A DNA stretch of 11,665 nt from an uncultured Mycoplasma sp. (GTDB lineage Bacteria > Bacillota_I > Bacilli_A > Mycoplasmatales > Metamycoplasmataceae). Where the stretch lies: assembly GCA_949284615.1 (NCBI GenBank), contig CASDWL010000015.1, positions 1-11,665 on the forward strand, in the 5' to 3' direction. Position 1 is the stretch's first letter; each line of letters opens with the position of its first letter. Both the position numbers and the translations under genes were made by a program. This document shows, one piece after another, positions 5,096 through 11,525 of this stretch. The notes under the pieces were generated by a model. It searched no databases, had not been told where the DNA came from, and saw nothing but the letters and a program-made list of their open reading frames with translations.

Positions 5096-6031
5096 ATGAG
5101 TAAAGAAAAAGAAATGGCTCAAAATAATGAAGAATTAATCATTGTAAATAATACTGAGCTTATTCCTGAAGGTCCAATTCAAATGTCAGATGTTATTGAA
5201 GAAAAAAATAATCATGATATTAAAAATGCTGAGACAATGTCTGTAGATGTTGATTTAGTAAAAAATAATTCAAATGTTTCTTTCCAATCTAAATCTCAAC
5301 AAGAAGGTAAAAAATTTTCAGGTACATTATCATATGAAGATGTTTTATCTCAAACACAAGAAATGGTTGATATCAAAAATTCAGATATTGATTATGTGAA
5401 CAATGATAGTAGATTAAGACAAGAAAAAATTGAAGGATTAACTGAACATTTCAATGATTTAAATGCTAAACCTTTATCATCAGTTGATTCATATGATAAC
5501 TACAATTTAGTTTTAAATAAATCAATTTGAAACTATAATGAGATTGAACAAAGAAATACAAAGTTCCAAATTATGGATTTAGCACTTCAAACTCAACTTT
5601 ATTTATATGATGGTGAAGTTATTGAGTTGAATGAGATAAAAGAATTAATTGAAAATTTCATTGAAACAGTTAAAGATAATATAGGTGCTGGATTCCCGGT
5701 TATTTTGAATTCAGTTTTAATTGTTGATATTATCCGTTTTGATAAATCAAAAATTATCCCTATCACAATTGCTAACCCAGCTTTAATTCCTCCTATTGGT
5801 GTTGTAGAATGACAATCAATAGTTAAAAACATAGGAAAAAACCATTTAGTTATTGAAGCATTTATTAGATTATTAGATAATGCATTAAGCAATGGACATG
5901 AATGTGAATTTTTCCCAGGAACTATTATGGTTAGAAATGTTTCAGGTATAACTTCATTATATATTTCTGAAGCTGCTGCTGTAAGATTTAATTCATCTAT
6001 TAGTCCTGTATCTCCAAAAAATAAAGAATAG
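5096..6031 (+). CDS. Unknown first subunit of F1-like ATPase operon
   Basis: A 311-aa protein, Trp encoded by TGA at codons 145 and 239. The ATG at 5096 is chosen over an in-frame GTG at 5030 because AAAGGAGA lies 6 nt upstream. Residues 1 to about 130 are acidic, rich in Asn/Glu/Ser and probably disordered; from about 135 to 300 there is a compact domain with an amphipathic helix (about 185-200) and hydrophobic strands around ILNSVLIVDIIRF and IIPITIANPALIPPIGVVEW. There is no signal peptide and no convincing transmembrane helix, so it is likely cytoplasmic. I do not recognise the family. By position just upstream of the gamma-like gene it corresponds to MMOB1620 of the M. mobile gliding motor, a mycoplasma-specific component co-purified with the dimeric ATPase; a GliD/GliE-type linker role is an inference from context, not from sequence identity I can measure. 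Confidence 0.85.
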
Positions 6032-6048
6032 TTTAAATCTAAACTATT
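6027..6048 (+). other. 9-bp intercistronic hairpin at the stop codon
   Basis: AATAGTTTA (6027-6035) and TAAACTATT (6040-6048) form a perfect 9-bp stem with the tetraloop AATC. The TAG stop of the first operon gene lies within the left arm. It is followed by AAATTTTC, a poor T-run, so it may be an attenuator, a processing site or a 3'-end protector rather than a full terminator, since the operon continues 32 nt later. Confidence 0.5.
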
Positions 6049-6079
6049 AAATTTTCAAAAACAAAAAGGGGGTTCATAG

Positions 6080-7800: not shown

Positions 7801-7816
7801 GAGAAAGGAAGAAATT

Positions 7817-9424
7817 ATGAAGGAAAAAGAATTAACAATAATTTCTATTAAAGATGATATTATTGTTGTCGAAGGTCAACATTCTTATCAATTCTTTGAA
7901 GAAATTAAATTTGGAAAAGGAATTAATGGTATTGTAATTAAAGCTAACTTTTATCGTGCTTATGTAGCATTGGTAGGGAAAAATACACAAGAAACATTAA
8001 AAGTTGGTCAAAAAGCATTTGCAACAGGTAAAGTATTTTCAGTTTCGGTGTTAAATAATTTTTTTGGTGCAATTATTAATGTTAACTCAGAAATTTTAGT
8101 TGAAGGAAATCCTGTTGATGTAGTTAAAGTTTTAGATCAAAAATTTGTTTTATCAGAAGCTAAACCATTATATGCAAGAAAAGAAGTTAATCAACCTCTT
8201 CAAACAGGAACATCAGCTATTGATGGTATTTTACCAATAGGTAGAGGACAAAAAGAATTAATTGTTGGTGATGCTGTTACAGGTAAAACTTCAATTGCTA
8301 TTACAGCTTTAATTTCACAAGAAAAAACAAATGTATTGAATATTTATGTAGCAATTGGAAAAAAACGTGAAGAACTAATTGAAATTAGAAATATTTTAGA
8401 GAAAAAAGGAGTTTTACACAAAACTATTATTGTTGCAACAGCACCAGATGATTCAGCAGCATCTAAATTCTTGGCACCTTATTTTGGAGCTTCAGTTGCT
8501 GAATATTTACAAGAACAAGGTGAAGATGTTTTAGTAGTATTTGATGATTTAACAAATCATGCTGATGCATATAGAGAACTATCATTATCAACAGGTTCAG
8601 CGCCAGGTCGTGAGGCATTCCCTGGAGATATCTTCTATGTTCATTCAAGATTGTTAGAAAGATGTGGAAGATATCAACCGGAATATGGTGGTGGATCAAT
8701 TACAATGATTCCTATTGCACAAACATTAGATGGAGATATTTCAGGATATATTCCAACAAACATTATTTCAATTACAGATGGTCAAATATATACTTCAGCT
8801 GATATTTTTAATGAAGGAAGAAGACCAGCAATTGAAATCTCTATTTCAGTTTCTCGTTTAGGATCACAAGTTCAAACTAAATCAATGCAAAAAGCAACAT
8901 CAGGATTAAAAAACTTAGTTTCTGAATATGAAAACTTCAAAAAATTTGCATCATTTAATTCAAATATTTCAGATAAAGATCGTGAAACAATTGCAAAAGG
9001 AAAAGCATTTGAAATTATTATTCAACAAGATGAATATGAAGTTGTTTCATTAGAAGTTACTTCATTATTATTCTTGATGTTAAAAAATGGATTCTTATCT
9101 CTATTCTTTAATGAAGCTATGGAAAAATCAACTGAATTATTAATTGTTCTAAGAGATATTATTAAAGTATTTTTTGAAAAAGATGTTTTAGGTCAAAAAT
9201 TAATTAAAATAGTTAATGAAAGATCAATTGATGATGAAGTTGTTGAATTATACATGAAACATATCATTTTACCATTAGTAAAATACCATTTATTATCAGA
9301 AAATAAATGATTGAGAAATAACCCAGAATTTGTTAAAGTATTCAAAGACATTAGAAATGATGGTAGAGTTCTTCTAGCATATGAAAGAAGAGGTCTAGAG
9401 AAAGGAATAGCTTATGAAATTTAA
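7817..9424 (+). CDS. atpA: F1-like ATPase alpha-type subunit (divergent paralogue)
   Basis: A 535-aa alpha-type RecA-fold subunit, with TGA-Trp at codon 498. Visible: P-loop GDAVTGKT (151-158, K157), VVFDDL (D243, D244), [32 protein letters not shown], and SVSRLGS with R347 in the Arg-finger position that completes the beta active site. Differences from true AtpA: the P-loop has AV instead of the usual RQ, the GRVVxxLGxPxD motif is lost, the first 20 or so residues that bind delta in F1Fo are absent (K157 against about 175 normally), and about 40 residues are added at the C-terminus. It is therefore a mycoplasma F1-like (Type 2/3, G1-like) alpha, not the housekeeping synthase. Shine-Dalgarno GAAAGGAAG precedes the ATG. 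The last 11 nt overlap the beta start. The gene symbol is by homology only. Confidence 0.92.
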
Positions 9425-11525
9425 TGAAATTTATAAAACAGCTGCAGATCGTAGAAAATATTTAGAAGGTTTTGATTTCATCAATCTAAAAAAAGCTGCT
9501 AAAATAGGAAAAATTACTACATCACACATTACAAACAAACAAGATTTAATTAAAAAAATCCTTTCTTTTGATATTAAAAATAAATATTTAATTTGTAAAA
9601 CTATATATGAAAATCAAGAAGAATATGGTAAACCAAAAGTTGATGATGTTGCAATAATAAAAACCAAAGAATTAGAAGCTGCAAGAATGAGAAAATTAGA
9701 TGAAAATAAAGGAACTAACACTATTTTGTTAGAAAAAACAGTTAAAAAAGTTGAATCAACTAAATCAGGAAAAACTAAAACAATTAAATTAGAACCTGAA
9801 AATGAAACAAAAGAAGAAATTGATTCTTTATCTAGTTCAAAAACAACAGAAGAAGATTCACAATTTAAAGTTTATGAAATGGAAGATTTAGCATTAATGC
9901 TAGAAGCACAATTAAATGTTATTGCTGATATGTTAAATATTCCTTCAAGTGAAAGAACTGAAAAAACTAAATTAATTGCAGCTATTGTTAAAGCTCAATC
10001 TTCAGATGAATTCTTAAAAAGAAAAGAAAATGCAAATAAAAAATTTAAAGGAACAAATCCTGTTAAACCTTTAGAACAAAAAGGATATGTAATTAAAGGG
10101 ATTATTTCTGAAGTAAAATCTCAAGTATATAAAATTCAAATTATCCAAGCATCAGAAAAAGTTGCTATTGGTTCAGCTTTTGAAGCAACTTTATCAAATG
10201 GACAAGTTAGAGTTCTTGAAGTTTCAGAAATTATTAACGATAAATTAATTTCAGCCTTTGTTTTAGGACCTGAAGAAGGATTAGCAATTGGTCAAGAGGT
10301 TCGTTCAAAAAATCAACCATACTCAATTAAAATTTCACCAAAAATTTTAGGAAGAGTTATTGATCCAATTGGAAGAATTTTAGATAACCCAAGTCATGAT
10401 CTAGATGGAAAAAATTATGCTCCATTATATGTAACTGAAGTTAACCAAAAAGATAGATATAAAATTATTCCTAAAACTGAATTATTAGAAACAGGAATTA
10501 AAGTTATTGATTTATTAATCCCTATTGCAAAAGGTGGAAAAACAGGACTATTAGGTGGAGCCGGAGTTGGTAAAACTGTTATTGTTCAAGAATTGATTAA
10601 CACCTTTATTAAACATCATGATGGTTTATCAGTGTTTACAGGGATTGGAGAACGTATTCGTGAAGGTCATGAATTATGACAAGAAGCTAAAGAATTAGGA
10701 TTTATTGACAAAACAACTTTTGTTTTTGGTCAAATGAATGAAGCTCCTGGATTACGTTTAAGAGCAGGATTTACAGGGGTTAAAGTTGCTGAATACTTTA
10801 GAAATAATTTAGGTAAATCAGTGCTATTGTTTATTGATAATGTATTCCGTTATGTGCAAGCAGGATCAGAACTTTCAACACTTTTAGAAAGAACACCATC
10901 AACTGTTGGATATCAACCAACACTAGTTTCAGAAATGGGAAGATTACAAGAACGTATTAATTCATCATTAGATGGTGATATTACATCTATTCAAGCTATG
11001 TATATTCCAGCTGATGACTTTACAGATCCAGCTCCTGTTGCAACATTTGCTCACTTTGATTCAACAATCATTTTATCTAGAGCACTAGCTGCACAAGGAA
11101 TTTATCCTGCTGTAGATCCATTAGCAAGTTCTTCAAAATTATTATCAATTAAATTTACATCAAAACGTCATATTACTATTGCTAGAAATACAACACAAAT
11201 TCTAAATAAATTAATTAAATTAGAAGAAATTATCAATGTTTTAGGTTTTGATGCATTAACAGACTCAGATAAACAAATTGTAGAAACAGGTAGAAGATTG
11301 AGAAGATTTATGACTCAACCATTTACAATTAGTGAGAAATTTACAGGAACACCAGGGAAATTTGTTAAATTAGAAGAAACATTAGATTCAGTAGAAGCAA
11401 TTATTTCAGGTCAATTTAATCACATTCCTGAATCAACATTTGCTTTTGTTGGTGGATTATCAGAAGTTATTGAAAAATTCAACTCAACTCAACAAGTTAA
11501 TGTACAACAACAAGTTTTAAAATAA
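9414..11525 (+). CDS. atpD: F1-like ATPase catalytic beta-type subunit with long N-terminal extension
   Basis: A 703-aa catalytic beta-type subunit, TGA-Trp at codon 422. The beta core starts near Y225: LGRVIDPIG, Walker A GGAGVGKT (381-388, K387), GERIREG with catalytic E413 and R414, Walker B LLFIDN (D475), [15 protein letters not shown], adenine-binding Y564 in [10 protein letters not shown], and DALTDSD (613-619) in place of DELSEED. All residues needed for hydrolysis are present. Normal beta is about 460-475 aa; the excess is an N-terminal region of about 220 residues: two helical segments (22-51 and 156-192) related to each other, separated by a charged Lys/Glu-rich linker. In the M. 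mobile G1-ATPase the beta N-terminal region holds phosphoglycerate kinase; the same could hold here. The ATG overlaps alpha by 11 nt with AAAGGA upstream, which would couple alpha and beta synthesis. The gene symbol is by homology only. Confidence 0.94.
9486..9989 (+). repeat. Internal 26-residue protein repeat in beta N-terminal extension
   Basis: Residues 25-50 (9486-9563) and 167-192 (9912-9989) of the beta-type protein align without gaps, with 9 of 26 identities: L..(A)A....I..S..T.K..LI..I. The pattern resembles SAP/Rho_N helix-turn-helix motifs. The repeat is at protein level only; the DNA is not obviously duplicated. Confidence 0.5.

What the first reader, a model, noticed from the sequence alone, without database searches (positions are those of the whole stretch)
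5096..11525. Five-gene G1-like rotary ATPase operon with no membrane sector
Seen: unknown protein, gamma-like, epsilon-like, alpha, beta in one tight operon under one good promoter, and no gene with transmembrane helices, no a, b, c or delta. Known: mycoplasma Type 2/3 F1-like ATPase clusters usually have seven genes, including two membrane proteins with 3 and 12 predicted helices; the M. mobile version (G1-ATPase) drives gliding as dimeric motors in chains. Inferred: this is a reduced, cytoplasmic-type version, possibly a gliding or other internal motor, or its membrane partners are encoded elsewhere.
Basis: partly seen in the sequence, partly recalled or inferred. Interest (0 to 1): 0.85.

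Follow-up and report, generated by a model that had tools for sequence, protein, structure and literature searches.

The report
Gliding-motor operon with relocated membrane genes
The window holds the genes of the rotary motor thought to drive gliding in some mycoplasmas; in this group of mycoplasmas the two membrane genes of that motor sit elsewhere in the genome and the known "leg" protein was not recognised, so the motor may work with different surface parts.

Summary
The five genes are real and are the Type 2 (G1) gliding ATPase, not a new class: GliD, gamma, MMOB1640-like, alpha, and beta with its N-terminal extension. Alpha falls inside the Type 2 clade (100/100), apart from F1Fo and Type 3. 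The operon does lack the two membrane genes of the published seven-gene cluster (MMOB1610, MMOB1650). They are not lost: here they are neighbours on contig C14, and 11 of 12 genomes of the genus have relatives of both. The pair matches the Type 2 pair (hhalign E 1e-25, 3e-62), not the Type 3 pair. So "no membrane sector" holds for the operon, not the genome. New here: a genus-wide split of motor and membrane genes; no Gli349 leg over cut-off in 12 genomes (4 of 4 controls positive); partial Gli521-like giant proteins in 8 of 12, not in this draft, with leucine-rich repeats at the N-terminus in 2 of 4 tested; an LRR-type lipoprotein behind beta in 8 of 8 readable loci. Whether these bacteria glide is untested.

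The parts
3378..4745 (+). Predicted lipoprotein (signal peptide ending ..FAIS-C), 455 aa, upstream of GliD; a homologue sits in this place in the 9 loci of the genus that are readable there, where the M. pulmonis/agassizii/testudineum loci have the 12-TM gene
   Evidence: phmmer within subclades; hhalign Prob 98.4, E 8e-15 between the two subclades; no Pfam or NCBIfam family; that it belongs to the system is inferred from position alone
5096..6031 (+). GliD (G1-ATPase bridge subunit, MMOB1620 orthologue), 311 aa
   Evidence: PDB 9io5_R E 2.6e-77; 87 proteins at E <= 1e-3, the window's own included, among them M. sualvi 90%, M. pulmonis, M. agassizii
6080..7147 (+). G1 gamma (MMOB1630 orthologue), 355 aa
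   Evidence: NF045862 388 bits, cut-off 250; PDB 9io5_G E 1.2e-51
7147..7800 (+). MMOB1640-family internal-complex protein, 217 aa
   Evidence: NF045864 237 bits, cut-off 100; no significant PDB match (best E 0.23); no sequence match to epsilon
7817..9424 (+). G1 alpha (MMOB1660 orthologue), 535 aa; start of F1 alpha missing
   Evidence: NF045863 824 bits, cut-off 600; match to F1 alpha model TIGR00962 starts at model position 28; PDB 9io5_D E 6e-196; tree
9414..11525 (+). G1 beta (MMOB1670 orthologue), 703 aa, with about 225 residues before the F1-beta core; P-loop [22 protein letters not shown] at the DELSEED place
   Evidence: NF045858 1170 bits, cut-off 850; F1 beta model TIGR01039 starts at residue 229; PDB 9io5_A E 4e-215; motifs, and extension homologous to the M. 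pulmonis group (Prob 99.5)
11526..11665 (+). Contig end: AT-rich hairpins and a T run (possible terminator)
   Evidence: fold -26.7 kcal/mol, no shuffle control; not found by the terminator scan

Best explanation
This is the Type 2 (G1) ATPase of a mycoplasma of the M. sualvi / M. moatsii group. By homology to the solved M. mobile motor, alpha3-beta3-gamma makes a rotary ATPase head, GliD and the beta extension pair heads into twin motors and chains, and MMOB1640 belongs to the internal complex. Inferred: the foot of gamma meets the membrane through the 12-TM protein and the large two-helix protein encoded apart on contig C14, and torque passes to a giant Gli521-like surface protein. Shown by sequence: in this genus the membrane pair lies outside the cluster as neighbours of each other, lipoprotein genes flank the motor genes, and no Gli349 is recognisable. 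My guess is that the cells still move, or shift surface proteins, with an adhesin other than Gli349; this last step is open.
For: Subunit identities. Alpha tree with Type 1, 2 and 3 rows: Type 2 clade 100/100, window with G124 and near M. moatsii. Cluster order: 12 of 12 genus genomes have MMOB1640 directly next to alpha; 9 of 9 with readable upstream have no 12-TM gene before GliD; 4 of 4 g13 genomes (by alpha identity M. pulmonis, M. agassizii twice, M. testudineum) have both membrane genes in place. Relocated pair: 12-TM in 11 of 12; large protein in 9 of 12 by search plus G126 and G131 by ORF scan; intact neighbours on one contig in 9. Profile match to the Type 2 pair Prob 99.7 and 100, to the Type 3 pair Prob 0.7 and 0.5. 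Gli521-like: 8 of 12. Gli349: 0 of 12 over cut-off against 4 of 4 controls. LRR-type lipoprotein behind beta: LRR_5 in 7 of 7 tested, N-terminal homology for an eighth.
Against: No expression, structure or motility data. Gli521-like was not found in the window's own draft by three searches (90% complete, 91 contigs), nor in G130, G131, G134; in G130 the contig stops at that place, the others are unexplained. The Gli521-like proteins match only parts of Gli521, all below the family cut-off of 2200 bits; G124's did not match a model built from three g13 Gli521 proteins, and the M. sualvi relative has no predicted end helices and did not match it either. Gli349 absence rests on one profile and would miss a strongly diverged leg. 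GliE could not be tested. The link of the moved pair to this motor rests on homology and co-occurrence only.
Confidence: 0.85

Rival explanations
1. The motor has kept its ATPase head but lost gliding: it serves another task such as a cytoskeletal sheet or surface-protein turnover, and the Gli521-like proteins are ordinary variable surface proteins.
For: No Gli349 over cut-off in 12 genomes; Gli521-like proteins occur in several full or partial copies in G124 (contigs C10, C2, C7, C11, C5, C4) and share only parts of Gli521; no held paper has both 'Mycoplasma sualvi' and 'gliding'.
Against: GliD, the beta extension, MMOB1640 and the membrane pair are kept across the genus; in G128 and G127 the match to Gli521 is collinear over about 1,100-1,200 residues of the C-terminal part, and complete copies have helices near both ends.
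Confidence: 0.3
2. The relocated membrane pair is a leftover of a Type 3 F1-like X0 cluster and the G1 motor here has no membrane sector.
For: Same make-up (12-TM plus large protein with C-terminal helices) as the clusters I take for Type 3; no third alpha/beta pair in this draft.
Against: The pair matches the Type 2 pair with E 1e-25 and 3e-62 and the Type 3 pair not at all; the large protein is 1,079-1,186 aa as in Type 2, not 698-770 aa.
Confidence: 0.03
3. A duplicated genuine F1Fo operon whose Fo genes were cut off by the contig end.
For: The contig ends 140 bases after beta.
Against: Genuine c, b, delta, alpha, gamma, beta, epsilon genes lie on C4; tree and NCBIfam margins; other genes follow beta in 8 of 8 readable relatives.
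Confidence: 0.01

Closest known systems
Type 2 / G1-ATPase of Mycoplasma mobile (MMOB1610-1670; PDB 9io5)
   Same: GliD, gamma, MMOB1640, alpha, beta with N-terminal extension, in the same order (order from PMC7052211)
   Different: MMOB1610 and MMOB1650 are not in the operon but lie together elsewhere; beta extension about 225 aa against 299 aa in M. mobile (PMC8406192, passage); no Gli349 recognised. No M. mobile genome was held: the comparison rests on PDB chains, its alpha (P0122) and papers
Type 2 clusters of M. pulmonis, M. agassizii, M. testudineum (G119-G122)
   Same: All seven proteins have homologues; a 7-TM neighbour is shared with part of the genus
   Different: There the 12-TM gene precedes GliD and the large gene lies between MMOB1640 and alpha; Gli349 over cut-off in 4 of 4 and Gli521 open reading frames of 4,140-4,582 aa
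Type 3 F1-like X0 ATPase (MIB-MIP partner)
   Same: Same gene logic: 12-TM, small protein, gamma, epsilon-like, large membrane protein, alpha, beta (identified as Type 3 by gene order, not checked against the MSC models)
   Different: Separate alpha clade, beta without extension (457-463 aa), large protein 698-770 aa, no profile match of GliD, MMOB1640 or membrane pair; gamma does match (Prob 97.5)
F1Fo ATP synthase (Type 1)
   Same: Alpha/beta catalytic motifs and the role of gamma
   Different: No delta, b, a, c in the operon; alpha lacks the start of F1 alpha; a separate set (c, b, delta, alpha, gamma, beta, epsilon) is on contig C4, which ends before any a gene

Membership tests
Type 2 / G1-ATPase | alpha and beta in the Type 2 clade | tested here: met
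   alpha tree 100/100; NF045863 and NF045858 over cut-off; no beta tree was built
Type 2 / G1-ATPase | beta with Type 2 N-terminal extension | tested here: met
   about 225 aa before the F1-beta core; homologous to the M. pulmonis group extension, Prob 99.5; against: the first 208 aa alone find no PDB chain, 9io5_A included
Type 2 / G1-ATPase | GliD, MMOB1630-type gamma and MMOB1640 in the operon | tested here: met
Type 2 / G1-ATPase | MMOB1610 and MMOB1650 in the same seven-gene cluster | tested here: not met
   absent from the operon in 12 of 12 (1650 place) and 9 of 9 readable (1610 place) genomes; homologues elsewhere, contig C14 here
Type 2 / G1-ATPase | motor-bound phosphoglycerate kinase | tested here: inconclusive
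   one PGK gene in 12 of 12; binding cannot be tested
Type 2 / G1-ATPase | GliE (MMOB3660) | not tested
   no sequence could be obtained here
M. mobile-type gliding machinery | Gli349 leg | tested here: not met
   0 of 12 over cut-off; weak hits up to 44 bits in 11 of 12, which also occur in 3 of 14 unrelated controls; 4 of 4 g13 controls over 4,200 bits
M. mobile-type gliding machinery | Gli521 crank | tested here: inconclusive
   partial homologues in 8 of 12 genus genomes, a relative of them in M. sualvi, none in this draft; NCBIfam scores of the pieces scanned 143-517 bits against a cut-off of 2200
M. mobile-type gliding machinery | gliding | not testable with these tools
   sequence data only
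Type 3 F1-like X0 ATPase | alpha/beta in Type 3 clade | tested here: not met
   alpha tree; MSC_0619 and MSC_0618 models below cut-off
F1Fo ATP synthase | alpha in Type 1 clade with delta, a, b, c genes | tested here: not met
   against: beta alone does pass the F1 beta cut-off of TIGR01039 (532 against 463 bits), far under its 1170 bits for MMOB1670

The most novel reading that the evidence does not exclude
A legless variant of M. mobile-type gliding: this genus drives movement with the G1 motor and a Gli521-like crank, but the Gli349 leg is gone and the task of its leucine-rich-repeat foot has been taken over by LRR domains on the crank's own N-terminus (seen in G128, G129) and/or by the LRR lipoprotein encoded behind G1 beta.
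Probability: 0.3. Interest if true: 0.85.

Novelty: new variant of a known kind. Interest (0 to 1): 0.62.

Why it matters
The 2025 structure paper states Type 2 in four species and leaves open how torque crosses the membrane, naming MMOB1610 and MMOB1650 as possible partners of gamma (PMC11864180, text parts 1-3 of 5 read). Here 12 further genomes, and the named species M. sualvi (GliD) and M. moatsii (alpha), carry the motor. In 11 of the 12, head and membrane pair are both kept although the genes have been pulled apart, which argues for a working link between them; a crank-like protein is found in 8, and the leg in none. That separates kept from replaceable parts, and the two named species would allow a direct test of gliding and of what serves as foot.

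Tried and rejected
Rejected: reduced motor without membrane sector (pair found on C14); Gli123 behind beta (it is an LRR-type lipoprotein with no match to the 1,128-aa protein behind Gli521 in M. pulmonis, which I did not identify); Type 3 leftover; epsilon identity of MMOB1640 at sequence level. A genome-contig scan with beta kept 80 loci, of which one (L037) was a mycoplasma relative, on a contig of the same length as G133's; the rest were titled as other bacteria. The P42 family (NF045859) matches in 11 of 12 genus genomes, 10 over cut-off, but I recall P42 as FtsZ-related, so I do not count it as gliding evidence. Rfam and tRNA scans of the window were empty. The first alpha tree had no Type 3 rows; P0133 and T1_P0145, two long-branch rows, were dropped from the second. 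Structure prediction of MMOB1640 was not obtained.

Weak points: LRR at the N-terminus of Gli521-like proteins was seen in 2 (G128, G129) of 4 tested, not in the first 1,500 aa of G124 and G133, and these last two are nearer to the window. LRR_5 also occurs in unlinked surface proteins here, so the shared repeat is weak evidence of descent. The secreted protein before the 12-TM gene is only weakly matched between subclades (Prob 92 over 177 columns). Transmembrane helices were counted by a simple hydropathy window, which also flags one stretch of the window's GliD that aligns with M. mobile GliD, a subunit described as having no transmembrane segment (PMC11864180), so it is probably not a membrane helix.
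Full report
What is there. Under the mycoplasma code the window carries five tightly packed + strand genes at 5096-11525. NCBIfam names four of them directly, each over its curated cut-off: gamma (MMOB1630 family, 388 bits), MMOB1640 family (237), alpha (MMOB1660 family, 824) and beta (MMOB1670 family, 1170). The first gene has no family there but is GliD: its only significant PDB match is chain R of the M. mobile twin motor 9io5 (E 2.6e-77). Gamma, alpha and beta also have 9io5 chains as best match. 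Alpha matches the F1 alpha model only from model position 28, in line with the missing stalk-binding helix described for G1 (PMC11864180, text parts 1-3 of 5 read). Beta has about 225 residues before the F1 core, homologous to the extension in the M. pulmonis group (Prob 99.5), although the first 208 residues alone find no PDB chain. A genuine F1Fo set (c, b, delta, alpha, gamma, beta, epsilon) is on contig C4, and no third alpha/beta pair was found in the draft.

Family. An alpha tree with five Type 1 rows, four Type 3 rows and 24 others puts the window in a Type 2 clade of 23 rows with support 100/100, beside G124 and close to M. moatsii; M. mobile is the next branch (87/78, unsure) and G123 stands outside. 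In the family, gamma over the MMOB1630 cut-off was found in 16 of 135 genomes: 12 of 12 of the window's genus g1 and 4 of 4 of g13. In the order, beta over the MMOB1670 cut-off was found in 15 of 320: 11 of g1 (G134's beta is cut off by its contig end) and the 4 of g13. Alpha rows show g13 to be M. pulmonis, M. agassizii (two) and M. testudineum. No M. mobile genome was held.

The missing membrane genes. The published cluster has seven genes, including MMOB1610 (12 helices) and MMOB1650 (2 helices) (PMC11864180; PMC7052211 section 7 and passages; PMC12994834 and PMC3369863, passages). In 4 of 4 g13 genomes both are in place. In 12 of 12 g1 genomes MMOB1640 is directly followed by alpha, and in 9 of 9 with readable upstream sequence a gene for a predicted secreted or lipoprotein, not the 12-TM gene, precedes GliD; three contigs begin too late to tell. 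Homologues lie elsewhere: a 12-TM protein in 11 of 12, a large protein in 9 of 12 by search and in G126 and G131 by ORF scan; in G134 (70% complete) neither was found. In 9 genomes both are intact neighbours on one contig, 12-TM first; G125 has several partial copies on three contigs; in G132 the two are fragments on two contigs. In this genome they are at C14:3695-5308 and 132-3692, minus strand. The g1 pair matches the g13 pair by profile (12-TM Prob 99.7, E 1.2e-25; large Prob 100, E 2.8e-62) and the Type 3 pair not at all (Prob 0.7, 0.5). As the clusters I take for Type 3 share the seven-gene order with g13, the split is most simply the derived state. The distance between operon and pair varies: about 5.8 kb in G128-G130, 28 kb in G133, about 49 kb in G124, where the pair lies upstream.

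Surface parts. The Gli349 model is matched over cut-off in 0 of 12 g1 genomes, 7 of which are at least 90% complete, and over 4,200 bits in 4 of 4 g13 controls. Weak hits of up to 44 bits occur in 11 of 12, at model positions of about 2670-2815, and hits below cut-off also occur in 3 of 14 unrelated control genomes. The two proteins with such hits that I scanned carry LRR_5 (BspA) repeats, and the M. agassizii Gli349 itself has LRR_5 at 2738-2828. In M. mobile that region is the start of the foot, with a serine needed for binding (PMC7052211, passages). Profiles or pieces of Gli521 and of its relatives find giant proteins in the same 8 of 12 genomes; outside g1 and g13 only G001 gave a weak hit (E 2.6e-4). 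The four complete ones read are 3,370 to 5,714 aa with helices near both ends. NCBIfam gives 143-517 bits to the Gli521 model for pieces from G124, G127 and G128, best in its C-terminal part and below its cut-off of 2200. With a model of three g13 Gli521 proteins, G127, G128 and G129 match about 1,600-2,530 and 3,500-4,570 but not the N-terminal part, G133 matches in shorter pieces, and G124 does not match. In G128 and G129 the N-terminus carries LRR_5; in the first 1,500 aa of G124 and G133 it was not found. None was found in G000, G130, G131 or G134; in G130 the contig ends at that gene's place. M. sualvi, whose GliD is 90% identical to the window's, has a 2,340-aa relative of the G124 protein (42% identity over 58% of the query stretch), without predicted end helices and without a match to the g13 model. 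In 8 of 8 loci readable beyond beta an LRR-type lipoprotein gene follows on the same strand, directly in G124 and G133 and after a gene of 149-164 aa in the other six: LRR_5 in 7 of 7 tested, N-terminal homology for G132; the two subclades match by profile (Prob 97.6). In the window the contig ends first.

How it may work. Shown by homology: a G1 head with GliD bridge and beta extension. Inferred: chains of twin motors, gamma rotation, torque through the 12-TM/large pair to a Gli521-like protein, and an LRR adhesin in place of Gli349. The first steps follow the M. mobile model; the last is my proposal.

What is in print. Type 2 is stated to occur in four species (PMC11864180). NCBI already labels the M. 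moatsii alpha as MMOB1660 family, so the bare presence of the motor there is in the databases. An Arctic char gut paper on a MAG whose nearest cultured relative is M. moatsii mentions F-type ATPase genes that could serve gliding (PMC11092275, passages). Searches for M. sualvi with gliding, Type 2 ATPase with sualvi, gliding mycoplasma MAGs and Gli521 with leucine-rich repeat listed no paper that, from title, abstract start or the passages seen, is on the split operon or a legless form; listings for M. moatsii and M. sualvi were seen as titles and abstract starts only. The held library is partial.

Noticed in passing
L133 (G123:C1:191001-211000), 2225-13369: Single-contig relative with a seven-gene cluster whose alpha is over the MMOB1660 cut-off (757 bits) but whose beta (641 bits) lacks the N-terminal extension and whose gamma scores only 69 bits: possible early branch of Type 2.
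   Followed up: partly
L132 (G001:C37): Divergent Type 2-like cluster (gamma 98 bits, below cut-off; GliD-like E 4e-20; 12-TM related to the g13 one, Prob 92) in another genus.
   Followed up: partly
L236 (G025) and L238 (G030): Type 3-like clusters with 12-TM, small protein, gamma, epsilon-like and large protein but no alpha/beta directly behind them: another split, of the other kind.
   Followed up: no
G124 contigs C10, C2, C7, C11, C5, C4: Several Gli521-like giant genes or fragments, some at contig ends: a multi-copy family of very large surface proteins.
   Followed up: no
L180, L181, L182 (G125 C41, C19, C76): Extra partial copies of the 12-TM and large membrane genes in one genome.
   Followed up: no
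L173 5403-7235 and syntenic genes: A protein of 457-610 aa, N-terminal helix flagged in most, precedes the relocated 12-TM gene in the 10 genomes compared (an ORF of 468 aa in the same place in G132 was not compared); candidate further component.
   Followed up: partly
window 410-3637 and 1-417, - strand: DNA polymerase III alpha (DnaE-type) gene and the start of a 5'-3' exonuclease-like gene, named from the sequence by eye; a homologue of the first lies in the same place in G124 and G125.
   Followed up: no
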